Source: a virus
Length of the DNA: 43,048 nt
Strand: one strand, 5' to 3'
IMG/VR virus record: IMGVR_UViG_3300042893_000793
Coordinates: 1 to 43,048 of that record
Shown here piece after piece: positions 27,270 to 43,048 of this stretch. Position 1 is the stretch's first letter. Each line of letters starts with the position of its first letter. Position numbers and translations under genes: made by a program. Below the pieces are notes generated by a model, which saw only the letters and a list, made by a program, of their open reading frames with translations, was not told where the DNA came from and searched no databases.

Positions 27270-27272
27270 CCT

Positions 27273-27300: not shown

Positions 27301-27318
27301 TTGTATATCCTGTACAAT
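27290..27318 (+). promoter_or_regulatory. Sigma70-like promoter for the 16-kb glycan/radical SAM operon
   Basis: TTTACT (27290-27295) and TACAAT (27313-27318) with a 17-bp spacer, four and five matches to the -35 and -10 consensus. It overlaps the tail of the terminator. The implied start is near 27325, the first base of the next ATG, so the message may be leaderless. No late octamer is present here, suggesting the operon is on a different temporal programme from the virion genes. Confidence 0.4.
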
Positions 27319-27324
27319 CGTAAC

Positions 27325-27630
27325 ATGAACACTGACGATTTAATTTCGCACAGCCGTGCTCGCTTTGATCACGTGGCTGCCAAACGCATACTCCGAGAGA
27401 AGTACGAAGCCCGAATGATATTTGCACATGCAGGAGGTATGTGGCGTGCCGGACCTGAACTCATAATTATCCTGGCCACTGTGCCTCCAGGTGATGCAGT
27501 GCTATTGGATTTGTATGAAACTCCTGTACAAGTACGGTCAGAAGAACTGCGCGGCTTGGCCATAACTCGCTGGCAAGAGCAAATGAATGCTTGGTTGATA
27601 GAACACAACGAACTCAGCACCAAACGATGA
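27325..27630 (+). CDS. Conserved small protein, 101 residues, unknown function
   Basis: First gene of the second region. I chose the ATG at 27325; a TTG at 27301 would add eight residues but lies inside the proposed promoter. The sequence runs SRARFDHVAAKRILREKYEA, then FAHAGGMWRAGPELIIILAT, VLLDLYETPVQV and a C-terminal RWQEQMNAWLIEHNEL. It resembles small hypothetical proteins common in marine T4-like phages that sit near tail fibre genes; I know of no assigned function. Length, charge and lack of Cys suggest a soluble helical protein rather than an enzyme. It overlaps the following glycosyltransferase start by ATGA. Confidence 0.7.
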   Translation: MNTDDLISHSRARFDHVAAKRILREKYEARMIFAHAGGMWRAGPELIIILATVPPGDAVLLDLYETPVQVRSEELRGLAITRWQEQMNAWLIEHNELSTKR

Positions 27631-28472
27631 CTACCGGCGCACTAATCTTTGCTTTTGATACCAAACACACACGCTATCTTGACATGGCAGCCTTCTGTGC
27701 TGAACGTGTTAAACAGTTTCTCGACATTCCGGTAGCAGTGGTCACAAACAATCCTGCTGCCAGCGATGAATCTGTGTTTAATCAAGTGATATATGCTGAT
27801 CCACTAGGTGAAAACTCACGCTGGTTTGGTGATATACAAGATCATGTACCTTGGCACAACAGCAATCGAGTAGATGCATACAATTTGTCGCCCTGGGATC
27901 AAACTCTAGTGTTAGACGCTGACTTTGTGGTCAATAGTGAAGATTTAAAAGCGGTTCTCGACAGCTCACAAGAGTTTATGTGCTTTCGATCGGCATTCAA
28001 TCTTGCTAGACCAGAGGAAGAATTTTTGAACACTTTTGGCACATACCGGTTTCCCATGTACTGGGCCACTGTGATGATGTTTCGCCGATCAAATACAGCA
28101 CAGTACATATTTGATGCCATGCAGATGATTCGTGAGAACTGGACACACTACAGAGATCTCTATCACATTGCACAGCCCACATACAGAAATGACTATGCAC
28201 TCAGTATAGCACTGGGTATTGTGAGTGGGCAAACACTAAAAGTAGATGCAATACCTTGGGGCATGCCCAGTGTGGTACCCGAAAACAAACTAACGTTTGA
28301 TAATGAAACGTTCTGGAATATTGAGTATCAAGATGCACAAGGCAAATGTAAAACAGTCTCAATTGTTGGACTGGACTTTCATGCCATGGGCAAAAGAGAT
28401 TTAGGAGTAATAGTTGAAACCCATAGAAGAACAAGGCTATGTGATACTAGCCTTGAACACGCCCCAAGTTGA
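27627..28472 (+). CDS. GT-A-like glycosyltransferase 1
   Basis: A 281-residue protein likely to transfer a sugar from a nucleotide donor. Residues 4-12 (GALIFAFDT) form the first strand. LDADFVV contains DAD at 97-99, the metal/nucleotide-binding DxD expected in GT-A folds, preceded by NRVDAYNLSPWDQT, an arrangement like GT8-type enzymes. An upstream GTG would extend the frame, but the ATG at 27627 overlaps the previous stop (ATGA), as elsewhere in this operon. It is homologous to the next gene over the N-terminal half. Soluble, no membrane anchor. Acceptor and sugar unknown. Confidence 0.72.
   Translation: MTTGALIFAFDTKHTRYLDMAAFCAERVKQFLDIPVAVVTNNPAASDESVFNQVIYADPLGENSRWFGDIQDHVPWHNSNRVDAYNLSPWDQTLVLDADFVVNSEDLKAVLDSSQEFMCFRSAFNLARPEEEFLNTFGTYRFPMYWATVMMFRRSNTAQYIFDAMQMIRENWTHYRDLYHIAQPTYRNDYALSIALGIVSGQTLKVDAIPWGMPSVVPENKLTFDNETFWNIEYQDAQGKCKTVSIVGLDFHAMGKRDLGVIVETHRRTRLCDTSLEHAPS
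28403..28407 (+). promoter_or_regulatory. Strong ribosome site fixing a TTG start
   Basis: AGGAG six bases before the TTG at 28414. No ATG in frame lies near. The site is inside the preceding gene. Confidence 0.7.
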
Positions 28473-29190
28473 CTACTTGGATTGTGCTAGAACACTGACA
28501 AAAACAATTAAACAGTGGAATCCTCACGCCAGTGTTTGTTTGATCACGGACAAGACTCATGCCAACGACCCACTGTACAATCACTATCGTGTGATTGACA
28601 ATGTTGACCGCGATAACTTGTATGCAAACGACTGGCAAGTGTTTTTTAATTCGCCATATCGTGAAACCATCAAGCTAGAAGCAGACATGATGATTGCCAG
28701 TTCAATTGATCACTGGTGGACTATGTTTAGACACAGAAACGTTGTGATTAGCACAGGCTGTAGAAACTGGCGCGATGAAGTTAGTACAGCAAGACACTAT
28801 CGCAAGGTGTTTGATGCTAACCACTTATCAGATGTGTACAACGCTATTACCTATTGGCGGCTGAGTGAAACAGCACGTGACTTTTTTGTGTTAGTGCGTG
28901 ACATATTTGCCAACTGGACAGAGTTTAAAAAGTTGATTAAATTTCCCGAAGATGTGCCCAGCACTGATCTTGTGTATGCAATGGCAGCAGACATAATTGG
29001 TAGAGAACTAGTGACCATGCCATTTGCAACATACCCACGGATTGTGCATATGAAACAAGCACATGCTGGTACAAAGACACAGCAATGGACCAACGAACTG
29101 GTGTGGGAAATGGATCCCATGCGTATACAGACTCAAGCACAATGGGGTGCGTTCCACTATCATGCAAAGGACTGGCGTCATGACACCTGA
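28414..29190 (+). CDS. GT-A-like glycosyltransferase 2, TTG start
   Basis: A 258-residue paralogue of the preceding enzyme: GYVILALNTPQVDYLDCART aligns with GALIFAFDTKHTRYLDMAAF, and KLEADMMI (EAD at 89-91) replaces LDADFVV. The first acidic residue of DxD is thus Glu, which may still bind metal. Start chosen at TTG 28414 because of the AGGAG site six bases upstream; the gene overlaps its predecessor by 59 bp, the longest overlap in the window. Other motifs: AITYWRLSETARDFF and DLVYAMAADIIG. Probably acts in series with glycosyltransferase 1 on the same glycan. Substrate unknown. Confidence 0.68.
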   Translation: MKPIEEQGYVILALNTPQVDYLDCARTLTKTIKQWNPHASVCLITDKTHANDPLYNHYRVIDNVDRDNLYANDWQVFFNSPYRETIKLEADMMIASSIDHWWTMFRHRNVVISTGCRNWRDEVSTARHYRKVFDANHLSDVYNAITYWRLSETARDFFVLVRDIFANWTEFKKLIKFPEDVPSTDLVYAMAADIIGRELVTMPFATYPRIVHMKQAHAGTKTQQWTNELVWEMDPMRIQTQAQWGAFHYHAKDWRHDT

Positions 29191-29515
29191 AGAGTTTTGG
29201 AATATTTTACATTCTGCGCCCGAGCCGTTACCAGTATTCTATCGCTTGTATTACAATGATGCAGGCGAACCTGTTTGTTACAGCATGGAACACCTGCTAG
29301 GTAATTACATTGACATTGACGCTGAAACATTTGGCCTAGCACCTGCCAACGTGCGTGTGGTAGACCGCAAGCTCAAATACATTACTGTACGCACATCAGA
29401 CAAACTTGTGCCCGGCAACACAGGTACACCATGCCACCCGCAAAATGTTGCGGTCGTAGTCACTCAACACGGAACACATTGGAGCAAACAAACACATGGC
29501 CTTGAATCAAATTGA
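29180..29515 (+). CDS. Unrecognised 111-residue protein in glycan operon
   Basis: Start placed at ATG 29180 (MTPEEFWNILHSAPEPLPVF); the frame is open further upstream but that part reads like a shadow of the glycosyltransferase. Visible features are FYRLYYNDAGEPVCYSMEHL, YIDIDAETFGLAPANVRVVD and a histidine-rich end (THWSKQTHGLESN). No known catalytic motif is evident. It overlaps the genes on both sides by 11 and 20 bp, so translation is coupled. Small size and placement between glycosyltransferases suggest an accessory or sugar-binding role, which is inference only. Confidence 0.68.
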   Translation: MTPEEFWNILHSAPEPLPVFYRLYYNDAGEPVCYSMEHLLGNYIDIDAETFGLAPANVRVVDRKLKYITVRTSDKLVPGNTGTPCHPQNVAVVVTQHGTHWSKQTHGLESN

Positions 29516-30428
29516 CATAGCAGACCTAGACTGCATATACTTGACGTATGATGAACCACAACGAGAAGAATTTTGGATCAAGATTAGGAATATGGTGCCT
29601 TGGGCACGAAGGGTGGACGGTGTTCTGGGGAGCGATGCGGCTCACAAAGCGGCAGCCCAAGCGAGTGGTACGGATAGATTCATTCTCATCGATGGCGACA
29701 ATCTCCCCGATCCGGCGTTCTTTAATCAAACACTTGTTTTTCCTAGCAAAGAATATGAGAGTGCTGTGTTCCGGTGGCGGGCACGTAACCATATCAATGG
29801 ACTGATGTATGGCAATGGTGGCCTGAGTTCATGGACCAAGGAACATGTGCAGAACATGCGTACACACGAAGCCACAGACGGCACAGCAGAAACACAAGTG
29901 GAATTTTGTTTTGATCCCTTATACTGGCCCATGTATGACTGCTATTCAACCACATACCCTAATCAATCCCCATTCCATGCGTGGCGTGCAGGCTTTCGTG
30001 AAGGCGTTAAAATGTGCTTGGATCGTGGACGCAAGCCTACTACAGCAGAGTTCCAGGACCGAGTGCATCAACGCAACTTGGATCATCTAACCATTTGGCA
30101 CAATGTGGGTGCTGATGTGGAACACGGCTATTGGGCCATGGCTGGCGCACGCCAAGGCACGTATATGACCATGCTTACTGCCTGGGATCATACTCTAGTG
30201 CAGAACTTTGAAGCCTTGGCTGAACTGTGGCGAACAGTTGAAACTTCGGAGCCTAGACTGCTTGCTGGACGACTGGCAGAAGAATTACACACACAATTGG
30301 GCTTGCCCATGATTGTGATGGAAGCAGAACAAAGTGAATTCTTCAAGAAGCACTACAGATCTAATTGGCACAATTGTGGCATTATGACACGTGAAATTGA
30401 TGTTATTAGGCAGCAAGAAGGTTGGTAA
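29496..30428 (+). CDS. GT-A-like glycosyltransferase 3
   Basis: A 310-residue protein with the strand-loop RFILIDGDNLPDPAFF; DGD at 66-68 is a DxD-type metal site, and FRWRARNHINGLMYGNGGLS follows at about 92-111, a pattern seen in glycosyltransferase-like proteins of marine phages. FCFDPLYWPMYDCYSTTYPN and a histidine/tryptophan-rich segment near 200 (HLTIWHNVGADVEHGYWAM) make up the rest. GGAG 11 bases upstream supports the ATG at 29496. It overlaps the next gene by one base. It differs from glycosyltransferases 1 and 2 in motif order and is probably a separate family. Confidence 0.68.
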   Translation: MALNQIDIADLDCIYLTYDEPQREEFWIKIRNMVPWARRVDGVLGSDAAHKAAAQASGTDRFILIDGDNLPDPAFFNQTLVFPSKEYESAVFRWRARNHINGLMYGNGGLSSWTKEHVQNMRTHEATDGTAETQVEFCFDPLYWPMYDCYSTTYPNQSPFHAWRAGFREGVKMCLDRGRKPTTAEFQDRVHQRNLDHLTIWHNVGADVEHGYWAMAGARQGTYMTMLTAWDHTLVQNFEALAELWRTVETSEPRLLAGRLAEELHTQLGLPMIVMEAEQSEFFKKHYRSNWHNCGIMTREIDVIRQQEGW

Positions 30429-30997
30429 TGGAAAAGAAACTGTTGTTAGATGGATGCAGTTTTACATATGGCCTTGGCTTGAAAAAAGAAGAAACCTTAG
30501 AACAGCACTTCATTGAAAATGGTTATCAAGTGTTGAATTTATCTCGACCGGGCAAAAGCAATCATGCCATTGCGTTAGATGTTTATAATCACATTGATGA
30601 AGTTGATGTTGTTGTAGTGGGCTGGACATACAGCTCACGCTGGCATTTAAAATATCACGGCGACAACATTGATTTGTTAGCCACACGACTGCAAATAGAA
30701 TTACCTTACACCATTGATAGTGGTGCAATTGAGCAAAGCTATCAAGACCTGCATCGATCGTTGTATAGTTTGTTTGATTCAACACATTGGGATCAGACCA
30801 GCGACATGCTAGTAGATACCACACATGCATTGGCACAGCAAAAATCAACTGTTTTTTTCAGTTGGGAGCCAAGAGATACACAATGTTCTTTATATTATCC
30901 CCATATACCAGTATCGCTTCGTTTGCCTTGCGGGCATCTCAATGCTGATGGAACCACATACTTGTTTGACAACTTAACTGCAAAATTAACCCAATGA
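30428..30997 (+). CDS. SGNH-hydrolase-like protein 1 (GCS variant)
   Basis: A 189-residue SGNH/GDSL-like protein; relatives are esterases or acetyl-transfer enzymes acting on glycans. Block I reads LLLDGCSFTYG, with candidate nucleophile Ser11 but Cys in place of the usual Asp. Block II is RPGKSNHA, block III VVVGWTYSSRW, and CGHLNADGTTYLFDNL near the end supplies His170. The Asp three residues before the catalytic His (DxxH) is missing. AGAAGG at 30416-30421 supports the ATG at 30428. It shares block layout with the protein at 42121. It could be a degenerate binding protein instead of an active hydrolase. Confidence 0.65.
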   Translation: MEKKLLLDGCSFTYGLGLKKEETLEQHFIENGYQVLNLSRPGKSNHAIALDVYNHIDEVDVVVVGWTYSSRWHLKYHGDNIDLLATRLQIELPYTIDSGAIEQSYQDLHRSLYSLFDSTHWDQTSDMLVDTTHALAQQKSTVFFSWEPRDTQCSLYYPHIPVSLRLPCGHLNADGTTYLFDNLTAKLTQ

Positions 30998-32376
30998 CCA
31001 AAGGCGATCAAAGCAAATTTATGAGCTCTGCAGAGCAGATGAAACAGGATCTAGGACCTGCACTATGCCTTGCCAAATGGAAACAGGTCAGTTTGCACTT
31101 GCCCACAGGACTCAATAACTCCTGTTACCATCCGCCACTGCACAAGATACCTGTAGAAAATCTTGCCACAGACCCAGGATCCTTGCACAACACGCCGCAC
31201 AAGAAAGCGCAACGTGTACTGATGTTACGGAACGAAAAGCCCTCTGAGTGTCAGTATTGTTGGAATATGGAAGCGGAAAACAAACTGAGTGACAGACACT
31301 ATCGTTCAGGCGAGCCGTGGGCGGCTGTGGACTTTGAACGCATAAAGAATTCAACAGGAGAAGAAAATGACGTTATCCCTAGCTACGTTGAGGTTAATTT
31401 TAATAATGTGTGTAATCTCATGTGCAGTTATTGTAGTCCGCAATTCTCTAGCAGCTGGCAACAAGAAGTGGATCGATCAGGCGGCTACCCTACTGCTCGT
31501 GTTCACAATGATCCTGGGCATTTTGTTGGAGATCGCAGGGTACTTCCGGCTAGAGAGCATAACCCTTATGTAGATGCATTCTGGGCGTGGTGGCCCACAC
31601 TGTATCCAGAACTCATACACTTCCGCATGACTGGCGGCGAGCCTTTACTGGACAAGAATACCTACAGAGTGTTTGATCATGTATTAGCTAACCCCAGCCC
31701 CAAACTGCATTTAAATGTTACATCAAACTTTTCAGTAGATGAAAAGTCATGGCAGAAGTATCTCGGCTATGTAAAACAACTGTGTGACGGCCGCATAGAA
31801 CACTTCATGCAGTATGTGAGTCTAGACGGCTGGGGCTCTCAAGCAGAATACATGCGTCACGGCATGGACTTTGATTTGTTATGGGATAGAGTAAATCAAT
31901 TCCTAACTGAAGTGCCTAGTTACAATAGCTTAACATTTATTGTTACTATGAACAACTTGAGTGTGACCAGCTTGGAAAACTTGTTTGCTGGCATCTTGGG
32001 CCTGCGTAACACATACTCTAAGACCTATCAGCGTGTGTGGTTTGATACACCTGTGTTACGCGAACCTGCTTGGCAGAGCTTGCAGATTCTGCCCGAAGCC
32101 TATGCTGATCGGCTGGACCACTTGTGGGCTTGGATGATACGCCAAAGCGAAACACCCGACGATCCATTTCACGGATTTAAAGACTACGAAATAGCACGTT
32201 TAGATAGAGACATTGCGTGGATGCGAGCAGGCCAAAGTCAAGATCATTCCCAAGCAAAGGCAGACTTTTATAGATTCTTTCAAGAACACGACCGCCGCAG
32301 AGGCACTGACTTTCTAAAGACCTTTCCTGAAATGAAATCTTGGTGGGCAGAATGTGAATATTGGAGTCACCGTTAA
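30994..32376 (+). CDS. Radical SAM enzyme 1 with N-terminal twitch-type Cys module
   Basis: A 460-residue radical SAM protein. The [4Fe-4S]/SAM motif CNLMCSYC is at 140-147 (Cys140, 144, 147) and MTGGEPLL at 212-219 binds the SAM amino group. Upstream lie Cys25, Cys44, Cys86 and Cys89, the last two in CQYCW, matching an auxiliary-cluster (twitch) module placed before the barrel. The Cys44 context SCYHPPLH is histidine-rich and shared with the enzyme at 33416. SLDGWGSQAEYMRHG at about 276-290 is conserved across the set. The C-terminus has DRRRGTDFLKTFPEM. Such enzymes generate a 5'-deoxyadenosyl radical to modify sugars, peptides or other substrates; substrate unknown. Needs iron-sulphur maturation by the host. 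Confidence 0.88.
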   Translation: MTKGDQSKFMSSAEQMKQDLGPALCLAKWKQVSLHLPTGLNNSCYHPPLHKIPVENLATDPGSLHNTPHKKAQRVLMLRNEKPSECQYCWNMEAENKLSDRHYRSGEPWAAVDFERIKNSTGEENDVIPSYVEVNFNNVCNLMCSYCSPQFSSSWQQEVDRSGGYPTARVHNDPGHFVGDRRVLPAREHNPYVDAFWAWWPTLYPELIHFRMTGGEPLLDKNTYRVFDHVLANPSPKLHLNVTSNFSVDEKSWQKYLGYVKQLCDGRIEHFMQYVSLDGWGSQAEYMRHGMDFDLLWDRVNQFLTEVPSYNSLTFIVTMNNLSVTSLENLFAGILGLRNTYSKTYQRVWFDTPVLREPAWQSLQILPEAYADRLDHLWAWMIRQSETPDDPFHGFKDYEIARLDRDIAWMRAGQSQDHSQAKADFYRFFQEHDRRRGTDFLKTFPEMKSWWAECEYWSHR

Positions 32377-33419
32377 TGTTTTATCTTGACGCTTGCACTG
32401 AGCTCACTGAGTTCTTGCACCCTTATGCTGATGAACTGTATTATGAATTTGAAAAACTTCCAGTGGTGCCCGGAGCCACTTATTTGATAGGCCGCGAGCA
32501 ACTGCGGCTCAATGGGCATCGCGTGAGAAGCATGTGCGAGCAATGCCAAATTATATTTGCCAATCCTGCAGAAGGTTCAGAAACTTTGTTATGGCATTTA
32601 AGAAAATATGGCATTGAAGATCTAGTGCTGGATGGCCGAGTTCAACTGATAGGTGGTGGCCGCATGCCTCCCGAATACAATTGCATGCTGTTTGAACATT
32701 TTCTAACTCAACCGTTTAGATATGAAGAAAATAAAGAAGCCTGTAAACGCACACCTGAAATCTTTTCTAAAACTGCTAAACCCTATTCTTTTTTGTGCCT
32801 AAATGGTCGCGGTCGCCCACATAGATGTGCTATACTAAACCAGCTGGAGCAATTGGGCCTACTTGATGGTGCTCTTTGGACCAACCTTGATGATTATCTA
32901 AGGCCAATTCGACTGTTACCTTCCTATTATGAAGTTGATAGATATCACGGCACTACTGTAGAAACAGGTTATGTAAAAGCACAATTATTCAATAACGAAT
33001 GGGGAGAAATTTACATTAAACCTGAACCATATATTGACACTTATTTTTCAGTAGTTACAGAAACTGTTTATAACTATCCTTGGAGTTTGTTTTCAGAAAA
33101 AATGTGCAAACCACTTGCTATTGGACACCCGTTTATTGCAGTGGCCAATTACGGATTCTATCGTGATCTTCGTGACCTTGGATTTCAAACGTTTCACAGT
33201 TTGATTGATGAAACATTTGATCAGTTAGATAACAACCAGGATCGTATGGATCGTGTGATAAACTCTATTAAAGACTTGTGCAGTCAAGATCTTGGGGCTT
33301 TTATCCAGGCCGCAGAACCCATTTGTAAATACAATCAACAGCATCTTCAAGAGTTTGCTCAACAGCACATGGACGAGTTGCCTGCAAGATTCTTTCAATT
33401 TATCAACTCATCCACATGA
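32376..33419 (+). CDS. Glycosyltransferase-like protein 4 (SEK..KPL family)
   Basis: A 347-residue protein. ATG 32376 overlaps the previous stop (TAATG); a TTG at 32361 would add five residues. The C-terminal half carries YFSVVTETVYNYPW, then FSEKMCKPLAIGHPFIAV (239-256) and LRDLGFQTF with DETFDQLDN, a layout found in nucleotide-sugar-dependent transferases where Glu/Lys of SEK contact the donor (GT10-like fucosyltransferases have a comparable SEK motif). Residues 135-152 (KPYSFLCLNGRGRPHR) may be the acceptor-side loop. It lies between radical SAM enzymes 1 and 2. The same C-terminal motif recurs in the gene at 37194. Sugar and acceptor unknown. Confidence 0.62.
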   Translation: MFYLDACTELTEFLHPYADELYYEFEKLPVVPGATYLIGREQLRLNGHRVRSMCEQCQIIFANPAEGSETLLWHLRKYGIEDLVLDGRVQLIGGGRMPPEYNCMLFEHFLTQPFRYEENKEACKRTPEIFSKTAKPYSFLCLNGRGRPHRCAILNQLEQLGLLDGALWTNLDDYLRPIRLLPSYYEVDRYHGTTVETGYVKAQLFNNEWGEIYIKPEPYIDTYFSVVTETVYNYPWSLFSEKMCKPLAIGHPFIAVANYGFYRDLRDLGFQTFHSLIDETFDQLDNNQDRMDRVINSIKDLCSQDLGAFIQAAEPICKYNQQHLQEFAQQHMDELPARFFQFINSST

Positions 33420-34747
33420 ACGATTTAGATTTTAAACACACAGTACTAGACAATCTCTCAGCCAGTTTTTGTGCAGCAAAATGGTATAACGCAACCATCT
33501 GGTTAGGAAGTGGACAGACCACAAGCTGTCATCACCCGCCAGCCCATTTGATCGACAGTGATAAAGTCAGCATCAACCCTCGGCTATTGCACAATACTGA
33601 TCAAAAGAAAGAAGATCGTCGCAAGATGATCAACGGGGAGCGTCCCCCTGGCTGCGAGTATTGTTGGAAAATTGAAGACATGGGCCGCGATGCCATTTCA
33701 GACCGTGTGTATAAATCACGGATATATCCTATAGAGGCATTAGATGAAGCTAGAAATACACCATATACCAAAGACGTCAACCTCCGTACACTTGAGATCG
33801 CTTTTGATCGTACTTGTCAGTTTGCTTGTAGTTATTGCAATCCCGCTTTTAGCAGTACTTGGGTACGCGATATCAAACGGAATGGACCATATACCCAATT
33901 GGTATCCGATGGTAGGAACCATTTTACTCACGCCCATGATAGCGCACAATTATATGAGTATGGAGAAAGCAATCCATACATTGATGCATTTTTTAAGTGG
34001 TGGGAATCGGATCTACATCGAACCCTGCAAGAGCTCAGAATCACCGGTGGTGAGCCCCTCATGTCAGGACATACTTGGAAGCTCATTGACTGGTTTAAAA
34101 CAAATTCGGGTAAGAGTTCAACACGCCTGGCTATCAATAGCAACTTAGGCACAGACGTCGACATTGACCGCTTGCTGTCCAGCACAAAAGGCATGGCAAT
34201 TGACATATACACTTCAAACGAAGCTGTAGGCACTCAAGCAGAATACATACGCGATGGCTTGGTCTGGGCGGACTGGATGCACAATGTAGAACGCTTGTTA
34301 AGTTCCAAGCAGTTCCGCGGCATACATGTGATGTGTACCATTAATGCACTGTGCTTGGATAGCCTAGATCAATTGCTAGACCGCATAGTGAAATGGAAGC
34401 TGGAGTATGGACGTGATGCTATATCATTTACATTAAACATATTGCGCTTTCCATCATTTCAATCGCCATTGGTGCTGCCTGATAATATACGCACTCGCTA
34501 TAGAGATCGATTGGCTAACTTCATGGTGCGACACAAAGGTTATTCTTACTTGCACGAACACGAAATCAATCATCTACAAAGATTAATTGATTATTTAGAC
34601 GTAGTGAAAACTCCGCACTCAGACGCATTTGATCGGCCCAAGCTGTTGAATGATTTTAAACAGTTCTTCTCACAGTACGACCAGCGCCGTGACAAAGTCT
34701 TTGTCACAGCATTTCCCGAATTAAAAGAATGGTACGATGAGCTATAA
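33416..34747 (+). CDS. Radical SAM enzyme 2 with N-terminal twitch-type Cys module
   Basis: A 443-residue enzyme closest within the window to radical SAM enzyme 1. The cluster motif CQFACSYC is at 134-141 and ITGGEPLM at 209-216. The N-terminal module has Cys19, Cys38 (in TTSCHHPPAH), Cys80 and Cys83 (CEYCW). GTQAEYIRDG near 239 matches the GSQAEYMRHG of enzyme 1, but the preceding SLDG found in the others is replaced (IDIYTSNEAV), hinting at a different active-site floor. The C-terminus ends KVFVTAFPELKEWYDEL, as in enzyme 1. Both pairs of termini overlap neighbours (ATGA; 11 bp). Enzymes 1 and 2 probably arose by duplication around the transferase between them. Confidence 0.87.
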   Translation: MNDLDFKHTVLDNLSASFCAAKWYNATIWLGSGQTTSCHHPPAHLIDSDKVSINPRLLHNTDQKKEDRRKMINGERPPGCEYCWKIEDMGRDAISDRVYKSRIYPIEALDEARNTPYTKDVNLRTLEIAFDRTCQFACSYCNPAFSSTWVRDIKRNGPYTQLVSDGRNHFTHAHDSAQLYEYGESNPYIDAFFKWWESDLHRTLQELRITGGEPLMSGHTWKLIDWFKTNSGKSSTRLAINSNLGTDVDIDRLLSSTKGMAIDIYTSNEAVGTQAEYIRDGLVWADWMHNVERLLSSKQFRGIHVMCTINALCLDSLDQLLDRIVKWKLEYGRDAISFTLNILRFPSFQSPLVLPDNIRTRYRDRLANFMVRHKGYSYLHEHEINHLQRLIDYLDVVKTPHSDAFDRPKLLNDFKQFFSQYDQRRDKVFVTAFPELKEWYDEL

Positions 34748-35996: not shown

Positions 35997-37213
35997 ATAT
36001 ACCACACGATCAATTTTGCGTATTGCCTTGGGTTTCGTTAGAAGCTTCTCCCATTGGCACAGTACGACCATGTTGTTTAGCAGATGATGAGTTATTGGAT
36101 GATGAGGGCAACAAGTTCTCATTGCTAACAGCTGACTTTGCGAGCATACAAAACTCACAAGCAATGATTCAACTGCGTGAAGAATTTTTAGCTGGAAAAA
36201 AACCACAAACATGCCGCAAGTGCTGGATGGAAGAACGAGCAGGACGCACAAGCAAACGCATGCATACCTTGGACAGAATGAAGCACATGGGCATATCAGG
36301 TGAGTGGACTGCTGATGCCAAGCCCTTGATGTTCCTGGATTTGAAGCTGGGCAACATCTGCAACTTGAAATGTCGTATATGCGGATCATGGTCATCAAGT
36401 CAATTTGCCACAGAAGAGCTTGCTGACATGGGAGTGGAGCAGGATCGAAAGAAATCATTTCCCTATCAAATGCTACGTGCTGGCGCTTGGCCCAGAGAAA
36501 ATCTATCATTTTGGCACGAAATAGATGCCTGTTTAAATGACATACGCTACATTGAATTCACAGGTGGCGAGCCATTTATGATTGATCAACATTTTGACAT
36601 GTTGCAGGGCATTGTGGATCGCGGAATTGCACATCAAGTTGAAATACATTACAACACCAACGGCACACAATGGCCTGCACGTGGTCCGGACATTTGGCGA
36701 CATTTTAAAACAGTAGAAGTGGCGTTCTCTATAGATGATTTGGGTGCCCGTTTTGAATATCAACGTACCAATGCAGACTGGGCAGTGGTGCTGGACACAA
36801 TCACAAGTTTTCAATACCTTCGAGATCAGTTACCAAACTTGCGTTTACAGTGCTGTTCAACCGTGAATGTGTTCAATGTGCGGTATATTGATCAACTGGC
36901 GCATTGGATAGCACTGCAACGTTTTGACTTTGTGTACTGGAATATCATGCATGACGCCTGGTACTTTTCAATTGCCACGCTGCCAGATTCTGTCAAGGCT
37001 GCTATTACACAACATTTGCGCACAGCCGATGTGCCTGCGCGGTATCGTGTGGAATTTGATAGAATCACGGATTTTATGAATAACGGTGCATCAACAGATG
37101 GGTTCATGACCAACATGAAGATCCGTGATTTGGATCGCAAACGCCAGCAAAATCTACGCACAGTAGCACCAGAATTGGCTGACATTTTAAACTATGACTA
37201 CGACCAAACTTAA
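35993..37213 (+). CDS. Radical SAM enzyme 4 with N-terminal twitch-type Cys module
   Basis: A 406-residue enzyme. CNLKCRIC is at 123-130 and FTGGEPFM at 189-196. The N-terminal module has Cys9 (FCVLPW), Cys27-Cys28 (RPCCLADDE) and CRKC at 74-77. The stretch AFSIDDLGARFEYQRTNADW near 243-262 corresponds to the SLDG region of the others. The domain layout is the same as enzyme 3, but overall identity looks low, so distinct substrates are likely. The gene starts at an ATGA overlap and runs 20 bp into the transferase gene at 37194. No C-terminal SPASM-type cysteines were seen, so one auxiliary cluster at most is expected. Confidence 0.88.
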   Translation: MNIPHDQFCVLPWVSLEASPIGTVRPCCLADDELLDDEGNKFSLLTADFASIQNSQAMIQLREEFLAGKKPQTCRKCWMEERAGRTSKRMHTLDRMKHMGISGEWTADAKPLMFLDLKLGNICNLKCRICGSWSSSQFATEELADMGVEQDRKKSFPYQMLRAGAWPRENLSFWHEIDACLNDIRYIEFTGGEPFMIDQHFDMLQGIVDRGIAHQVEIHYNTNGTQWPARGPDIWRHFKTVEVAFSIDDLGARFEYQRTNADWAVVLDTITSFQYLRDQLPNLRLQCCSTVNVFNVRYIDQLAHWIALQRFDFVYWNIMHDAWYFSIATLPDSVKAAITQHLRTADVPARYRVEFDRITDFMNNGASTDGFMTNMKIRDLDRKRQQNLRTVAPELADILNYDYDQT

Positions 37214-38168
37214 ACTGTTGCATCACCCAGATGACTATGTGAATTTTGCACAAGGTGCTATTGCTCACCTGGTGCTGCCGCATTTTGATCTAGTGGAATA
37301 CACGCCCGATACCAATTATAATAGTGCAGACACAGTGATCTTAACAACTTTTTGGCGAGCCAAGACACCAGACACAGCGTGGTGGCGGTCTTTTCAACAG
37401 CAGGGATTTCGCATAGTAGTAGATCATTTGTACGACAGTGATGTAGATACTGTGAGCAGACGGATCAATCCACTCCAGCTGGAATTGCGCTGTGGCAATT
37501 GGTTGTGGTATAACAGTGCCTTGGCCAGTGAGCAATTTGGATACAATCAATATCAGCCGCAGCGTGATGTCAAATATTCATTTATCATGTTAATGAACAA
37601 AATACGCGAGCACAAAGATCGCGTGGCTGCTGAACTGGCGACGTTATTGCCGGCTGCCAGATGGAGTTATGTTGAACGCGGTCAACACATTGGTGATCCT
37701 GAAGAAAACAATCCCAGTGTAATTTGGCATCTGTACATGAATCCCAACTGGTATGACACTGCTGCATTTTCAGTGGTGGTAGAAAGCTGGATGCGCACTG
37801 ATCGATGGGTGCATGATTCCAACAATTACAGAACAGAAGTAAGCGAAAAGATTTTTAAACCCCTGGCATTTTATCATCCATTTGTGTGCTATGGCAGCGA
37901 AGGCACCTGCAGATATCTACAGCGCGAAGGGTTTGAAACATTCTCAAATCTCTGGTCAGAAGAATATGACACAATATTAAATGACAATCAACGCTTCGAA
38001 GCAGTGACGCCAGTGGTGTTTGACGCAGTAAAGAATTACAGTTCAGGCCGGTATGATGCGCTAACTGAACAGAAACTCCGGCACAACAAACATCATTACT
38101 TCAACACAGCCTTAATTCATCAGCGTTTCCAAACAGAAATCATTGATGTGATACAGGAGTTTGTGTGA
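37194..38168 (+). CDS. Glycosyltransferase-like protein 5 (SEK..KPL family)
   Basis: A 324-residue protein whose C-terminal part has FSVVVESWMRTDR, then VSEKIFKPLAFYHPFVCYG (216-234) and LQREGFETF with DTILNDNQRF, the same motif series as the gene at 32376. The N-terminal part differs (DTVILTTFWRAKTPDTAWW; VVDHLYDSD near 75-83). Residues about 127-145 (KYSFIMLMNKIREHKDR) match the KPYSFLCLNGRGRPHR position of its relative. The pairing of this family with radical SAM genes, one after enzyme 1 and one after enzyme 4, suggests transferase/radical SAM functional partners. Likely transfers a sugar; donor unknown. Confidence 0.62.
   Translation: MTTTKLKLLHHPDDYVNFAQGAIAHLVLPHFDLVEYTPDTNYNSADTVILTTFWRAKTPDTAWWRSFQQQGFRIVVDHLYDSDVDTVSRRINPLQLELRCGNWLWYNSALASEQFGYNQYQPQRDVKYSFIMLMNKIREHKDRVAAELATLLPAARWSYVERGQHIGDPEENNPSVIWHLYMNPNWYDTAAFSVVVESWMRTDRWVHDSNNYRTEVSEKIFKPLAFYHPFVCYGSEGTCRYLQREGFETFSNLWSEEYDTILNDNQRFEAVTPVVFDAVKNYSSGRYDALTEQKLRHNKHHYFNTALIHQRFQTEIIDVIQEFV
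38155..38159 (+). promoter_or_regulatory. Ribosome site fixing a GTG start
   Basis: AGGAG five bases before the GTG at 38165. The GTG overlaps the preceding stop (GTGA). Confidence 0.65.
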
Positions 38169-38764
38169 TAGCTGTGTGCGGTGACAGTTTTTGTGTGCCC
38201 GACCCAGACTACGGACCAATGTGGGTGGATCTGTTGGGTCAGCAGTGTGATCTACACAACTACAGTGAGCGCACCGCCACTAACCTGCTGATAGCACGCC
38301 AAGTGGATCAAGCTGTCAGAGACAACGCTGAGTTTATAATAGTGCATTTCACCAGCTGCACACGCGGAGAAAAGCCACATGCTGGCCGTTATGTGCCGTT
38401 CAGCTATCACACTGCCAGCGAAATTACCACGCCATTTGACTCAAATGCTTTGAGAATTCTAAAAGAATACTACACAGAGTTCTTTGATTTAGATCTTGCT
38501 ATATATCAAAACGCCATCACAATAGAACACACCCTGAACCGATTGGTGCAGAGTGGCCGGCCATTTAGATTTGATCAGGGCGGGTTTGAACACTCAAGCT
38601 ATGGCGGCACAGGGCAGTATTTTGCACAGTACACGCAATATCGCAGTCGATACAACTTGTGGGATCATGTGACCACACGTGAGTTCCGTCCGTACTATCA
38701 CATAACAAATGATCAGACACATACACAAGTGGCTGAATACTATGCACAGGAAATAGCAAAATGA
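38165..38764 (+). CDS. SGNH-hydrolase-like protein 2
   Basis: A 199-residue protein starting at GTG (MIAVCGDSFC), supported by AGGAG upstream. GDS at 6-8 gives the candidate nucleophile Ser8. Near the C-terminus, HITNDQTHTQVAEYY contains DxxH (Asp183, His186), so unlike the other two SGNH-like proteins here the full Ser-Asp-His set is present. The middle part (IIVHFTSCTRGEKP) occupies the place of block III without its Asn. The family hydrolyses or transfers acyl groups on glycans. Other motifs: RPFRFDQGGFEHSSYGG, unlike common esterases. It overlaps genes on both sides by four bases. Probable role: (de)acylation of the sugar built by this operon. Confidence 0.65.
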   Translation: MIAVCGDSFCVPDPDYGPMWVDLLGQQCDLHNYSERTATNLLIARQVDQAVRDNAEFIIVHFTSCTRGEKPHAGRYVPFSYHTASEITTPFDSNALRILKEYYTEFFDLDLAIYQNAITIEHTLNRLVQSGRPFRFDQGGFEHSSYGGTGQYFAQYTQYRSRYNLWDHVTTREFRPYYHITNDQTHTQVAEYYAQEIAK

Positions 38765-39720
38765 AAAAGATACTGGTATGCGGTGCAGGCGGATTTATTG
38801 GCACACATCTTGTGCGCAGCCTGCGAGCACAGGGCCATTATGTAATTGGCGCTGATTTAAAGTTTCCGGAGTTCTCAATCACTGAGTGTAATGAATTCCA
38901 TCAAGTGGATCTTCGCAATCAACGCAGTGTCACACGCTTGATCAAACGTGACATTGATGAAATATATCAGCTGGCAGCAGACATGGGCGGTGCAGGCTAT
39001 ATCTTTATTGGGGATAATGATGCGGACATCATGCACAATTCAGCTATAATTAATTTGAATATTCTGCATGAAATGACTTTTAAGAAAATACCCAAAATCT
39101 TTTACTCAAGTTCAGCTTGCATCTATCCCGAACGCAATCAACTGCATGCTGATCGTCCCATGCTGACTGAAGCGTCAGCTTATCCAGCAGACCCTGACAG
39201 TGAGTACGGCTGGGAAAAGCTATTCAGCGAACGCCTGTACGCCAGCTATGCGCGAAACTATGGCATTGATGTGCGTGTGGGCAGACTGCACAATGTATTT
39301 GGTCCAGAGGGTACGTATGCAGGCGGCCGGGAGAAAGCCCCTGCTGCACTGTGCAGAAAAGTCATACAAAGCAACGGCGTTGTGGAAGTATGGGGTCCAG
39401 GTACACAAACTCGCAGTTTCATGTACATAGACGACTGCATCGAAGGCATACACAGATTGATGGCCAGCACATATACTGAACCCATTAATATTGGCTCCAG
39501 CAGAATGATTGCCATAAATGATCTAGTACAGTTGATCAGTCAAGTGAATGGTCGACCAGTTGAAATTCGGAATATTGATGGACCGCGTGGTGTAATGGGT
39601 CGTACCAGCGACAACACCTTGATTGAACAGGTATTGGCATGGGCTCCCCCAGACAGTTTGGAACGGGGTCTTGCAGAAACTTACAAATGGATTGAACAAC
39701 AACTAAATGCACAAGCCTGA
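38761..39720 (+). CDS. gme: GDP-mannose 3,5-epimerase
   Basis: Short-chain dehydrogenase-type epimerase, 319 residues. It inverts C3 and C5 of GDP-D-mannose to give GDP-L-galactose (GDP-L-gulose as C5-only product). The NAD site is GAGGFIG at 8-14. DMGGAGYI (75-82), SSACIYPE (117-124), YGWEK (149-153), GPEGTYAGGREKAPAALCRK (181-200) and TRSFMYIDDCIEG (217-229) are specific to this family. Compared with the plant enzyme as I recall it, Cys145, Tyr174, Lys178, Lys217 and Arg306 fall at Cys120, Tyr149, Lys153, Lys192 and Arg281, all with the same offset of 25, so catalysis should be intact. The N-terminal extension of the plant enzyme is absent. Supplies an activated sugar to the transferases of this operon. 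Confidence 0.92.
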   Translation: MKKILVCGAGGFIGTHLVRSLRAQGHYVIGADLKFPEFSITECNEFHQVDLRNQRSVTRLIKRDIDEIYQLAADMGGAGYIFIGDNDADIMHNSAIINLNILHEMTFKKIPKIFYSSSACIYPERNQLHADRPMLTEASAYPADPDSEYGWEKLFSERLYASYARNYGIDVRVGRLHNVFGPEGTYAGGREKAPAALCRKVIQSNGVVEVWGPGTQTRSFMYIDDCIEGIHRLMASTYTEPINIGSSRMIAINDLVQLISQVNGRPVEIRNIDGPRGVMGRTSDNTLIEQVLAWAPPDSLERGLAETYKWIEQQLNAQA

Positions 39721-40996
39721 AACCCTATGTATGGCACCCTGGACTCACACATATTTGAGTCCACAAACCGAACGGCGCATGTGCTGTGCGTCAAGAGAAC
39801 CTGCCCAGAACTTTGAACAGTATATAGACACCAAGTCAGGCACTGGGCGATACATTCCTGTTACCTTGGAAGAACACTGGAATTCGCCGCACATGCAGAG
39901 TGTGCGCAGACGCATGATGGCCGGCGAAACCTTACCCGAATGCGAAGTGTGCAATGATAAACTGTTAAACACAGATGTATATCGCACGTATTTTTGGCAT
40001 CTGTTCAAACACAAATACGACGATGTGATTGGCAAAACAGATCTAAATGGACGCACAAGCATGTTGCCTGTAAGCTGGGACTATCGTTTCTCAAACCTAT
40101 GCAATTTTAAATGCAGAACCTGCGGCGATATGTTGAGCAGTTCATGGGAGACTGAACAGCGTCAGCATAGAATGATCGACTGGTCAAATACCAAAAACAC
40201 CTGGATGCAGCCGGACGTGCGTAGAGAAATCTCACAGTTTCAAGACACACAAATTGAAGAAGAATTCAGTCGTGCAGTAGAAGAACACAGAGTGGAAGAA
40301 ATCTACTGGGTGGGTGGCGAGCCACTCATGTACGAACAGCACTGGCGCTACATGAAAAGAATCATTGAATTAGGAGATGGAAAGAATGTTTATGCTAGAT
40401 ATAATACTAATCTTAGCCGTATTGAGTTGGGTGGTTGCAATCTCTATAAAGATATTTTGTTGGGGCTACGAGATTGGCAGATCTGTGCAAGCCTCGACGG
40501 AACAGGCGCCATCGGAGAATACATCCGAACAGGTCTTTCCTATCCATTATTTTTAAATAATTTCCGGCAGGGACTGGCAATTGCTACCAACCCACGCCAA
40601 ATGCGCCTGGACTTTACGCTTACACTGCCGGGCATGTTTGAAGTGGACAACATGACGGCTTTGGCTTCGGAATTGAGTGTGCAGATGTTGGCCAAAGTGA
40701 TATTCAGCTTTGGGCCTGATATTATCATGAGTCCACTTGCACTACCCAGACACTTATTAGATCCTTGGATAGACGAACTAGCAGGCCGCTCCGCTGGCGC
40801 CATGCGTGATGTACTGCTACAATTAAAAACCCGTCCTACATTTGAGGAACAATGGCCCGACACCTATCGTGCAGGGCTTGCAAAAGGCAAAGCTCGTGTG
40901 TTAAAATTAGAAAGCATACGCACACAGTCAATCACAATGGCAGAAATACTTGCTCAAAGACCTGCGGTGCTAGATTGGTGGAATGAAATTGCTTGA
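39707..40996 (+). CDS. Radical SAM enzyme 5 with N-terminal twitch-type Cys module
   Basis: A 429-residue enzyme overlapping the epimerase by 14 bp. CNFKCRTC is at 132-139, followed by GDMLSSSW, and VGGEPLM at 202-208. The N-terminal module has Cys8 (LCMAPW), Cys26-Cys27 (RRMCCASRE) and CEVC at 79-82. WDYRFSNLCNF resembles WDIRFSNLCNL of enzyme 3, so these two are the closest pair among the CC-type members. ASLDGTGAIGEYIRTGLSYP near 265-285 is the SLDG region. The link to the epimerase by overlap makes GDP-L-galactose or a product derived from it a possible substrate; this is inference. No C-terminal SPASM cysteines. Confidence 0.88.
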   Translation: MHKPETLCMAPWTHTYLSPQTERRMCCASREPAQNFEQYIDTKSGTGRYIPVTLEEHWNSPHMQSVRRRMMAGETLPECEVCNDKLLNTDVYRTYFWHLFKHKYDDVIGKTDLNGRTSMLPVSWDYRFSNLCNFKCRTCGDMLSSSWETEQRQHRMIDWSNTKNTWMQPDVRREISQFQDTQIEEEFSRAVEEHRVEEIYWVGGEPLMYEQHWRYMKRIIELGDGKNVYARYNTNLSRIELGGCNLYKDILLGLRDWQICASLDGTGAIGEYIRTGLSYPLFLNNFRQGLAIATNPRQMRLDFTLTLPGMFEVDNMTALASELSVQMLAKVIFSFGPDIIMSPLALPRHLLDPWIDELAGRSAGAMRDVLLQLKTRPTFEEQWPDTYRAGLAKGKARVLKLESIRTQSITMAEILAQRPAVLDWWNEIA

Positions 40997-42026: not shown

Positions 42027-42124
42027 AATGGATTAGAAGAATTTGGGACAGGATCACACTAGAGTATCGCTACCGTAAAAAACTAAAAGAACTACGCAAA
42101 AGAGATCCGTTCATCTACAAATGA
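42023..42124 (+). CDS. Small cationic protein, 33 residues
   Basis: ATG at 42023 and TGA at 42122-42124, with ATGA overlaps to both neighbours and an AAGGAG site at ideal distance. The sequence MKWIRRIWDRITLEYRYRKK continues LKELRKRDPFIYK: 14 Lys/Arg against 5 Asp/Glu, no Cys, and an amphipathic helix pattern with aromatic residues at the N-terminus. The DPFIYK ending looks conserved-type; I associate similar tiny proteins with marine T4-like phages. Possible roles: membrane- or nucleic-acid-binding peptide, or a helper of the flanking enzymes. A role as precursor peptide for the radical SAM enzymes is conceivable but unsupported (no recognisable core). Confidence 0.75.
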   Translation: MKWIRRIWDRITLEYRYRKKLKELRKRDPFIYK

Positions 42125-42777
42125 AAAAACAGTTGCTCACAGTAGGTGATAGCTTCACACATGGTGACGAATTAACTGATCGGTATCAGGCCTGGCCTTA
42201 TCGGTTGGCAGATAAGTTAGGGTATGAAGTCTACAACATGGGGCAATCTGGGTGCAGCAATTTTAGCATTCTCCGAAGAACATTGGAAGAGATTGCTGTG
42301 AATCATTATGATTTGATAGTGATAGGATGGACAAGTCCAGGAAGAATAGAGTGGAAAGATGATATAGGTATTGCTTATGATCTTTGGCCGGGCTACAGTG
42401 CTAATCATAAGTTTTTTGAAGATCACCCCTGGAGGGATAACTTTTTTAAGTTTATTAGCCAACATCATAATTCGTCATATCTATATGAACAATACATAAT
42501 ACATGTGTTGTCGTTACAGTCTTATTGTCACGCACGTGGGATTGACTATCGCATGATAAATGTACGACACAACGATTACTATCACAAGGTTGGTAAAGAG
42601 CCACACGAACAATTGGCAAAGCAGATAGATAAAGAAAAATTTATTGGATGGGACAAATTTGGAATGATGGAATTAACAAATGACCTTCCCCAAGGACCAG
42701 GTGGCCATCCACTAGAAGCAGGACACGAAAGAATAGCAAATGAAATATACACTGGGTATATCAGCAGGGTTTCATGA
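42121..42777 (+). CDS. SGNH-hydrolase-like protein 3
   Basis: A 218-residue protein with a canonical block I, LLTVGDSFTHG (Asp10, Ser11), block II MGQSGCSNFSI (40-50), block III LIVIGWTSPGR (65-75) and the C-terminal GGHPLEAGHERIANEI (His196, His202). Asp three residues before His196 is missing, as in the protein at 30428, with which it shares IGWT/VGWT in block III. It may use a Ser-His pair or only bind ligands. It overlaps the 33-residue gene by ATGA and the carbamoyltransferase start by 38 bp. Likely acts on acyl groups of the glycan; not proven. Confidence 0.7.
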   Translation: MKKQLLTVGDSFTHGDELTDRYQAWPYRLADKLGYEVYNMGQSGCSNFSILRRTLEEIAVNHYDLIVIGWTSPGRIEWKDDIGIAYDLWPGYSANHKFFEDHPWRDNFFKFISQHHNSSYLYEQYIIHVLSLQSYCHARGIDYRMINVRHNDYYHKVGKEPHEQLAKQIDKEKFIGWDKFGMMELTNDLPQGPGGHPLEAGHERIANEIYTGYISRVS

Positions 42778-43048
42778 CGCTGCTGCGGCAGTGATTGATA
42801 ATCACGGAAAAATTGTTTTTGCCGGGCATAGTGAACGCTATAGCAAAAAGAAAAATGATCCTGACTTTTGTCAAGGGCTGTTGGATGATGTGCTGGAGTA
42901 TGGCCCAGATGTGGTTGCATACTACGAACGTCCTTGGCTGAAACAACTACGTCAATGGTATGCAGGGCAGGGTATTGAGTGGAACAAATTTACTGTACAG
43001 CAAATATTACGTCAACAACTGGGCGGCCAGATTGAACCTGAACGGGTG
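42740..43048 (+). CDS. Carbamoyltransferase, N-terminal part (3' truncated by window)
   Basis: The first 103 residues of a NodU/CmcH/BlmD-type O-carbamoyltransferase, which uses carbamoyl phosphate and ATP to carbamoylate a sugar or other hydroxyl. MKYTLGISAGFHDAAAAVID matches the conserved GIS..HD.(A/S)AA.. nucleotide-fold start, GKIVFAGHSERYSKKKND corresponds to G.I..A..EERF.R.KHD, and VVAYYERPWLKQLRQW to VVFYEKPFLKF. In such proteins the ATP and carbamoyl sites lie later, outside the window. Start at ATG 42740, inside the end of the SGNH gene; no strong ribosome site (AAAG only), so coupling is likely. Confidence 0.85.
   Translation, partial: MKYTLGISAGFHDAAAAVIDNHGKIVFAGHSERYSKKKNDPDFCQGLLDDVLEYGPDVVAYYERPWLKQLRQWYAGQGIEWNKFTVQQILRQQLGGQIEPERV

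What the first reader, a model, noticed from the sequence alone, without database searches (positions are those of the whole stretch)
27325..43048. A 16-kb phage operon that looks like an undescribed glycan-modification pathway
Seventeen coupled + strand genes directly behind the tail fibres combine five radical SAM enzymes, five transferase-like proteins, three SGNH-like proteins, GDP-mannose 3,5-epimerase and a carbamoyltransferase. Each family is recognisable, but the combination points to a full pathway making, attaching and decorating a rare sugar, carried by a virus. It could modify the phage's own fibres and giant spike, or rebuild the host surface to block rival phages. The operon continues past the window.
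Basis: partly seen in the sequence, partly recalled or inferred. Interest (0 to 1): 0.88.

Follow-up and report, generated by a model that had tools for sequence, protein, structure and literature searches.

The report
Phage operon that builds decorated sugars
Large uncultured phages share a strictly ordered set of genes, with five radical enzymes at its core and exchangeable side genes, that most likely makes and decorates an unusual sugar coat, perhaps for the phage's own fibres.

Summary
Window 27301-43048 carries 18 same-strand genes: five radical SAM (rSAM) proteins, all above the NF033640 cut-off, five transferase-like, three SGNH-like, a GDP-mannose 3,5-epimerase, the start of a carbamoyltransferase and three unknowns. 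It is no chimaera: 78 of 80 related viral contigs keep the gene order (the two exceptions are cut-off contigs), as do all 32 of 44 more distant contigs that hold two or more of the rSAM genes. The five rSAMs form five old ortholog groups. Epimerase and SGNH genes are optional: 83 accessory families sit in fixed slots. Relatives continue with an amidinotransferase, transferase-like genes and an aminotransferase.

Best reading: a soluble pathway that makes and decorates an amino/guanidino/carbamoyl sugar. The acceptor is inferred; the likeliest is the neighbouring Ser/Thr-rich fibre. A conserved terminator and sigma70-like promoter separate operon and fibres, while the amidinotransferase unit has a late promoter.

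Precedent: Campylobacter phages CP220/CPt10 carry a module of five non-homologous rSAMs plus an amidinotransferase (2010). So this is a new variant of a known kind; substrate, product and host are unknown.

The parts
24486..26264 (+). fibre/virion protein (fib24), late-promoter core TATAAATA at 24448
   Evidence: phrog_14394 virion structural, E 3e-11; motif (one site in the window where chance gives 1.6)
26277..27269 (+). fib26: Ser/Thr-rich (33%) fibre-like protein, candidate acceptor; no family match
   Evidence: S+T 0.333; orthologs (by position) are the most S/T-rich called protein of 150 aa or more in two large related contigs; no Pfam/PHROG match
27272..27293 (+). intrinsic terminator between fibres and operon
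   Evidence: hairpin in 37 of 38 and T-run in 38 of 38 related junctions
27290..27318 (+). sigma70-like promoter TTTACT-17-TACAAT, overlapping the terminator tail; ATG of g1 at 27325, 6 bases after it
   Evidence: on its own at chance level: 43 such sites found, 42 expected; -10 element in 31 of 38 related junctions, late motif in 0 of 38
27325..27630 (+). g1, small protein of unknown function, first gene of the operon
   Evidence: no match in isolate phages
27591..28472 (+). g2, transferase-like (DxD motif read by eye), no family match
28414..29190 (+). g3, transferase-like; phrog_1903 (unknown function)
29063..29515 (+). g4, small conserved protein of unknown function (true start probably 29180)
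29496..30428 (+). g5, core GT-A-fold transferase-like protein with DGDN motif
   Evidence: AF2 pLDDT 72.9; Foldseek best E 2.2e-3 (RmlT), VIA Z up to 8.8 over about residues 4-157
30422..30997 (+). g6, SGNH-like (GCSF motif), optional cassette of slot A
   Evidence: motif only; slot A in 7 of 7 placements
30994..32376 (+). g7, core N_Twi_rSAM
   Evidence: 313.5 bits; CxxxCxxC
32361..33419 (+). g8, transferase-like with a TEK-type motif; core in the near relatives, missing in part of the distant ones
   Evidence: alignment
33416..34747 (+). g9, core N_Twi_rSAM
   Evidence: 301 bits
34737..35996 (+). g10, core N_Twi_rSAM
   Evidence: 391.4 bits; 77-100% identity in the 80 best loci
35993..37213 (+). 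g11, core N_Twi_rSAM
   Evidence: 319.9 bits
37194..38168 (+). g12, transferase-like, cassette of slot E
   Evidence: slot E in 27 of 27 placements
38165..38764 (+). g13, SGNH-like (GDSF motif), cassette of slot E
   Evidence: motif only; slot E in 6 of 6
38761..39720 (+). g14, GDP-mannose 3,5-epimerase, cassette of slot E
   Evidence: PDB 8sg0 E 4e-94, active-site segments aligned; slot E in 7 of 7
39707..40996 (+). g15, core N_Twi_rSAM
   Evidence: 273.4 bits
40983..42026 (+). g16, core protein of unknown function; possible cyclophilin-like barrel with a helical insertion
   Evidence: AF2 pLDDT 86.6; no Foldseek match at E<=0.001; VIA Z about 8, borderline
42121..42777 (+). g17, SGNH/DUF6071-like, cassette of slot G
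   Evidence: DUF6071 E 2.5e-10
42740..43048 (+). g18, carbamoyltransferase, N-terminal 103 aa, cut by the window end
   Evidence: full length in relatives

Best explanation
The operon is the phage-encoded core of a soluble (cytosolic) pathway that makes and tailors an unusual amino/guanidino/carbamoyl sugar. Steps: nucleotide-sugar changes (SDR and DegT/StrS aminotransferase at the far end of the locus; GDP-mannose 3,5-epimerase where slot E carries it); C-H chemistry by five non-redundant N_Twi rSAM enzymes; O-carbamoylation; optional acyl or methyl changes by slot cassettes; transfer by GT-A-like and TEK-motif transferases; late amidination by an AGAT-like enzyme. I infer that most steps run from a host-type sigma70 promoter before virion assembly, that amidination and one or two transferases run from a late promoter with the virion genes, and that the acceptor is a virion protein, most likely the Ser/Thr-rich fibre encoded next door. 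Swapping cassettes at fixed slots would then vary the displayed glycan. Shown: gene families, order, conservation, slots, promoter types, motif integrity. Inferred: substrate, order of steps, acceptor, benefit.
For: Enzyme kinds: NF033640 five times, epimerase, GT-A-like fold of g5, carbamoyltransferase over the cut-off in 14 of 14 records, AGAT-like gene in 16 of 19 records, 15 of them at 61% identity or more (85; family 36, 91), a DegT-type aminotransferase 6.8-13 kb past the carbamoyltransferase in 13 of 14 records, the 14th ending too soon, SDR beside it in the two contigs read in full. Order: 78 of 80 loci and 32 of 32 distant loci collinear. Five monophyletic rSAM groups in a quick tree. 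No protein with three or more hydrophobic segments among core genes or 83 cassette families. fib26 S+T 31% on average in 47 loci, rank 1 of 276 and 1 of 263 proteins. Promoter split: sigma70 -10 at 31 of 38 g1 starts and late motif at 0 of 38; late motif at 27 of 27 AGAT starts and 7 of 8 fib24 starts; baseline over all genes 22% late motif, 11% sigma70 -10.
Against: No product, substrate or host is known. rSAM enzymes with SPASM/twitch domains often act on peptides, so protein modification is not excluded. Five transferase-like genes have no Pfam family above cut-off and only one was folded, at modest confidence and with no Foldseek match at E<=0.001. Ser/Thr richness is common in beta-structured fibres (recalled), and fibre adjacency is shown only in the near relatives: none of the distant loci was read upstream past g2. 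The epimerase is present in a minority of loci. No AGAT-like match in 3 of 19 records, and the one in G018 is only 33% identical; the DegT match in G002 is only 31% identical. The early-type promoter would also suit a host-directed role. The promoter p-values treat related loci as independent.
Confidence: 0.5

Rival explanations
1. The pathway remodels the host envelope glycan (exclusion of rival phages or receptor masking), not the virion.
For: The operon has a host-type sigma70 promoter and a terminator that shields it from the fibre transcript; some cassettes look envelope-related (TctC-type binding protein; Peptidase_S11).
Against: No polytopic membrane protein (flippase, polymerase, Gtr type) in core or cassettes by a crude hydropathy scan; the AGAT unit is driven by late promoters (27 of 27); in the near relatives that reach it the operon sits beside the fibre.
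Confidence: 0.22
2. The rSAM set modifies virion proteins directly (peptide C-H chemistry), with the sugar genes as a second, partly independent layer.
For: SPASM/twitch rSAM enzymes are often peptide maturases and several such NCBIfam models give weak hits far under their cut-offs; g16 has a possible cyclophilin-like barrel.
Against: Collinear carbamoyltransferase, GT-like, DegT and AGAT genes fit sugar chemistry. A precursor peptide was not searched for.
Confidence: 0.15
3. A DNA hypermodification pathway.
For: Phage carbamoyltransferases, GTs and rSAM enzymes occur in DNA hypermodification (recalled knowledge).
Against: No PF00303 member (thymidylate synthase; the family of dUMP/dCMP hydroxymethylases, recalled) in 14 of 14 records while 9 of 14 controls ring; the locus is with tail genes. 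The Tet_JBP search was uninformative, no control rang.
Confidence: 0.05
4. A diffusible small molecule (aminoglycoside- or guanidino-natural-product-like) released or used in the cell.
For: AGAT, carbamoyltransferase, DegT aminotransferase and twitch rSAM together recall aminocyclitol and guanidino natural-product pathways (recalled); the AGAT profile also hits StrB and SxtG.
Against: Many transferase-like genes; no exporter-like polytopic protein; place beside fibres. Cyclitol synthases and self-resistance genes were not searched for.
Confidence: 0.06

Closest known systems
Campylobacter phage CP220/CPt10 module (CPT_0080-0090 in FN667788)
   Same: A few genes behind base-plate lysozyme and PAAR genes; five rSAM genes, a glycine-amidinotransferase-like gene, two nucleotide-diphospho-sugar-transferase-like genes; reported as an interchangeable module (passages; annotation).
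   Different: Its rSAM proteins are not N_Twi_rSAM (0 over the cut-off in the whole record; g10 and g11 give only E 0.04 or worse); no carbamoyltransferase, g5 or g16 match in the 45 kb read. Only its AGAT is detectably homologous (E 3e-7).
Vibrio phage K566 rSAM cluster (K567 seen only in a listing)
   Same: Four distant twitch-rSAM-like genes within 7 kb.
   Different: 20-25% identity; no carbamoyltransferase, g5 or g16 match in the 25 kb read.
Carbamoyltransferases of T4-like cyanophages and pelagiphages
   Same: Nol-like carbamoyltransferase; in S-SSM5 about 4 kb from a fibre gene.
   Different: 27-32% identity in the rows listed; no rSAM match in the S-SSM5 stretch read.
Marine virus AG-345-D19 (single-cell contigs)
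   Same: Carbamoyltransferase (50% identity), rSAM and AGAT within 8 kb.
   Different: Short unannotated contig; rSAM 23-26% identical and cut by the contig end; other order.
Moraphages (Arch Virol 2025, PMC12619734)
   Same: Large, mostly freshwater phages with four core putative glycosyltransferases (passages and abstract).
   Different: Described as a lineage outside the T4 groups; 'radical' and 'carbamoyl' do not occur in its text.

Membership tests
N_Twi_rSAM (NF033640) | Score above the curated cut-off over the whole model | tested here: met
   Five of five, 273-391 bits against 170
N_Twi_rSAM (NF033640) | CxxxCxxC cluster motif | tested here: met
   294 of 294 frames in 60 dereplicated loci
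N_Twi_rSAM (NF033640) | Catalytic activity and substrate | not testable with these tools
   Needs purified enzymes
GDP-mannose 3,5-epimerase | Full-length match and active-site segments (SSAC, YxxxK, GREK; roles recalled) | tested here: met
   8sg0 E 4e-94, segments aligned
Nol/NodU-type carbamoyltransferase | Both Pfam domains | tested here: inconclusive
   Met in the relative tested; the window holds only 103 N-terminal residues, under the cut-off
AGAT-like amidinotransferase (in relatives, outside the window) | Profile match with catalytic Cys and HxD columns (roles recalled) | tested here: met
   E 1.8e-18; a Cys aligns with the Cys that reads Ala in 4jdw
GT-A glycosyltransferase (g5) | GT-A fold | tested here: met
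   Nearly all of the 50 rows are GT-A or nucleotidyltransferase folds, Z up to 8.8; no Foldseek match at E<=0.001; model confidence modest; donor and acceptor unknown
SGNH hydrolases (g6, g13, g17) | Family-level match | tested here: inconclusive
   g17 under the GDSL cut-off, g6 and g13 no match; motifs read by eye
CP220-type rSAM/amidinotransferase module | Five rSAM genes plus amidinotransferase behind tail genes | tested here: met
   the amidinotransferase is seen in relatives, past the window
CP220-type rSAM/amidinotransferase module | Homologous rSAM proteins | tested here: not met
   0 over the cut-off in the whole record; no hit of the g10 profile in the 45 kb read
Gtr-type phage seroconversion cassette | Polytopic membrane flippase and transferase (recalled) | tested here: not met
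   No protein with three or more hydrophobic segments in core or 83 cassette families (crude hydropathy)
DNA hypermodification via dUMP/dCMP hydroxymethylase | PF00303 member | tested here: not met
   0 of 14 records, controls 9 of 14; the records may be fragments
DNA hypermodification via Tet/JBP | PF12851 member | tested here: inconclusive
   0 of 14, but no control rang

The most novel reading that the evidence does not exclude
A phage-made, natural-product-like glycan (guanidino, carbamoyl, amino and radical-tailored sugar) displayed on the virion's Ser/Thr-rich fibre, built by five successive, non-redundant rSAM enzymes and diversified by slot-specific cassettes, i.e. a serotype-like, exchangeable chemical coat of a virus; reached independently in Campylobacter phages with rSAMs of another family.
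Probability: 0.3. Interest if true: 0.92.

Novelty: new variant of a known kind. Interest (0 to 1): 0.78.

Why it matters
rSAM enzymes were called very rare in phages in the Campylobacter-phage papers (passages); here five old orthologs stay in the same order across widely diverged large phages, so the product must be worth much to them. It turns the unexplained five-rSAM module of Campylobacter phages (2010) into a comparative problem with over a hundred loci in hand. If the product is a virion glycan, it would be a new way for a virus to vary its surface chemistry and a source of new rSAM sugar chemistry.

Tried and rejected
Chimaera at 27.3 kb: rejected, the fib26-g1 junction recurs in 38 dereplicated loci, and another assembly (L006) is 100% identical over fib24-g14, with g13 at 99%. 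Scattered remnants: rejected. Co-transcription with the fibres: not supported. DNA hypermodification: not supported. Same lineage as the moraphages: not supported by the passages read. Bacterial origin of g16: the one genome scan (query g16 only) found two MAG contigs, which look phage-like to me; bacterial relatives of the rSAM genes were not sought. Foldseek gave no match to g16 at E<=0.001.

Corrected or weak: a first motif count confined to residues 90-190 gave 111 of 121 (g7+g9) and 55 of 60 (g10); without that limit it is 121 of 121 and 60 of 60. The sigma70 count at g10 (22 of 60) comes from coding sequence; without coding bases it is 3 of 60. At g1 the same change lowers 31 of 38 to 25 of 38, since called starts can lie upstream of the likely ATG. 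The two non-collinear loci of 80 (L057, L068) are contigs cut before g7, where a roughly 26% hit elsewhere was taken for it; all five rSAMs were found in 77 of 80, those two included. The tree is the quick one, the careful search did not finish; five extra rSAM copies have long branches; g7 has 12 rows against 17 for the others because some loci do not reach it and frames outside 330-620 aa were dropped. Genes were called by a simple open-frame script, not a trained gene finder. Paper searches listed no paper that I recognised as describing this operon; only open-licence PMC papers are held. Seen: abstract, section list and passages of PMC12619734; passages of PMC2853527, PMC3322345 and PMC12398825; all others in listings only.
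Full report
What is in the window. The window is a virus record of 43,048 bases. Its left part carries T4-type baseplate genes (gp5-, gp25- and gp6-like), a 5,026-aa virion protein (phrog_10938, with a wedge-fibre connector match) and fibre-like genes. The gp6-like protein is closest, at 35%, to Sinorhizobium phage Phosso among isolates. From 27301 to the end run 18 + strand genes, g1 to g18. Five are N_Twi rSAM proteins, g14 is a GDP-mannose 3,5-epimerase, g18 is the start of a carbamoyltransferase.

Recurrence. g10 finds 230 relatives in viral contigs, of which the tool kept the best 80. In 78 of 80 loci (59 of 60 after removing near-copies by g10) the ten genes tested (g2, g3, g5, g7, g9, g10, g11, g15, g16, carbamoyltransferase), where present, lie in the same order and strand; the two exceptions are cut-off contigs. 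A second scan, started from a distant g16, gave 44 loci: 35 have at least one of the five rSAM genes and all 35 are in order; 32 have two or more and all 32 are collinear, 25 with all five; 9 have g16 alone. Ortholog identities to the window there fall to 36-46% for g10, g11 and g15. A quick tree of 94 rSAM rows puts the 80 labelled rows into five groups, each one side of a branch with support 97-100. So the five enzymes probably split before these phage lineages did, and none seems to have replaced another since.

Copy number. In 14 related records, every one has N_Twi rSAM genes above the cut-off, 5 to 10 each by my count of the list. Some of the 14 are near-copies of each other (L010/L011/L012; L040/L044). 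Extra copies lie singly or in pairs elsewhere, in G005 for instance near genes that look fibre- and terminase-like by eye.

Slots. Between core genes lie 83 accessory families (genes of 100 aa or more, 60 dereplicated loci): slot A (g5 to g7) is filled in 40 of 55 loci, B1 (g7 to g8) in 3 of 56, B2 (g8 to g9) in 7 of 56, C (g9 to g10) in 5 of 58, D (g10 to g11) in 19 of 59, E (g11 to g15) in 30 of 58, F (g15 to g16) in 0 of 53, G (g16 to carbamoyltransferase) in 11 of 49, H (after it) in 27 of 42. Many families keep to one slot: the g12 type 27 of 27 in E, the epimerase 7 of 7 in E, one SGNH family 7 of 7 in D, the g6 type 7 of 7 in A; others move, such as an extra rSAM family (c19) in D, E and H. 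Among 82 representatives Pfam finds SGNH/DUF6071, rSAM, SDR, AMP-ligase, tryptophan halogenase, DegT, FkbM methyltransferase, nucleotide-sugar dehydrogenase and others (the first 25 of 57 families were listed). The window's epimerase, g6, g12, g13 and g17 are such cassettes.

Beyond the window. After the carbamoyltransferase, near relatives carry on the opposite strand an AGAT-like amidinotransferase (profile E 1.8e-18 to human AGAT, then StrB and SxtG; catalytic columns aligned) and one or two transferase-like genes with the TEK-type motif, then on the + strand a long gene that looks g5-related by eye. An AGAT-like gene is in 16 of 19 records, at 61% identity or more in 15. A DegT-type aminotransferase lies 6.8-13 kb past the carbamoyltransferase in 13 of 14 records (in G002 a more distant one, 31%), the 14th ending too soon, with an SDR beside it in the two contigs read in full.

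Transcription. The last fibre gene and g1 are separated by a hairpin terminator (37 of 38 dereplicated junctions at -7 kcal/mol or below, T-run in 38 of 38) whose tail overlaps a TTTACT-17-TATAAT type promoter; in the window TTTACT starts at 27290, TACAAT ends at 27318 and the ATG is at 27325. Taken alone the window's promoter-like sites are at chance level (43 found, 42 expected); the case rests on recurrence. In this clade TAAATA behaves as a late-promoter core: 44% and 53% of its sites in two contigs lie at gene starts, about 4.5% expected. It precedes fib24 in 7 of 8 and AGAT in 27 of 27 loci, but g1 in 0 of 38; a sigma70 -10 is at g1 in 31 of 38; over all genes 22% have the late motif and 11% the -10. 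The binomial p-values there ignore relatedness. So the operon is probably read early or throughout, the amidinotransferase unit late.

Unknown core proteins. g16 folds with confidence (pLDDT 86.6), has no Foldseek match at E<=0.001 and a borderline resemblance to cyclophilin barrels (Z about 8). g5 folds at pLDDT 72.9, without a Foldseek match at E<=0.001 but with GT-A and nucleotidyltransferase folds filling the VIA list.

How it most likely works. Amino, guanidino and carbamoyl groups are typical of decorated sugars; SDR, DegT, AGAT and carbamoyltransferase form a plausible order of steps; the rSAM set would add C-H chemistry such as epimerisation, dehydrogenation or deoxygenation (inference from known twitch enzymes, recalled). 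Nothing in core or cassettes has three or more hydrophobic segments, so the acceptor is probably soluble. fib26 is 27-36% Ser+Thr (mean 31% in 47 loci), and its ortholog, by position, is the most Ser/Thr-rich called protein of 150 aa or more in two related contigs of 353 and 349 kb (1 of 276, 1 of 263). The late promoter on the amidination unit fits finishing steps during virion assembly. This makes virion decoration my first choice and host-surface change the main rival. The adjacency to fib26 is shown only in the near relatives; the distant loci were not read that far upstream.

Against what is known. Campylobacter phages CP220/CPt10 have a 10-12 gene interchangeable cluster with five rSAM genes and a putative glycine amidinotransferase, function unknown (passages of PMC2853527); in the CP220 record it lies a few genes behind base-plate lysozyme and PAAR genes and includes two nucleotide-diphospho-sugar-transferase-like genes. 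Its rSAM proteins are not of the N_Twi family, only the AGAT is clearly related. So the same kind of module seems to exist twice with different rSAM families. g1, g3, g5 and g16 have no match in 50,697 isolate-phage records; g10 has four weak ones. The searches listed under Tried and rejected showed no description of this operon in the open PMC library.

Noticed in passing
window 8578-23658: A 5,026-aa virion protein gene, related to phrog_10938 with a wedge-fibre connector match; G005 has a 4,900-aa protein with a near-identical start.
   Followed up: partly
G001 and G005 (L086-L121); window 24448: TAAATA looks like the late-promoter core of this phage clade.
   Followed up: partly
L122 70-1206; L124-L131, L137: g16 relatives without any rSAM match nearby; in the MAG contig L122 g16 lies beside genes that look like tripartite tricarboxylate transporter parts by eye.
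   Followed up: no
records G003, G004: Further AGAT-like matches elsewhere in the genome, up to seven matched places per record.
   Followed up: no
L170 11977-18713 (Vibrio phage K566): Three annotated rSAM genes plus a fourth on the other strand that matches the same queries; a phage record with a possible culture in which the chemistry could be tested.
   Followed up: partly
L086-L103 and L104-L121: 29 and 24 tRNA genes in the two large phage contigs.
   Followed up: no
window 32361-33419 (g8) versus L018, L007, L008: g8 is 94% identical to L018 but 43-45% to L007 and L008, whose g7 and g9 are 88-93% identical, so g8 seems to be swapped in place.
   Followed up: no
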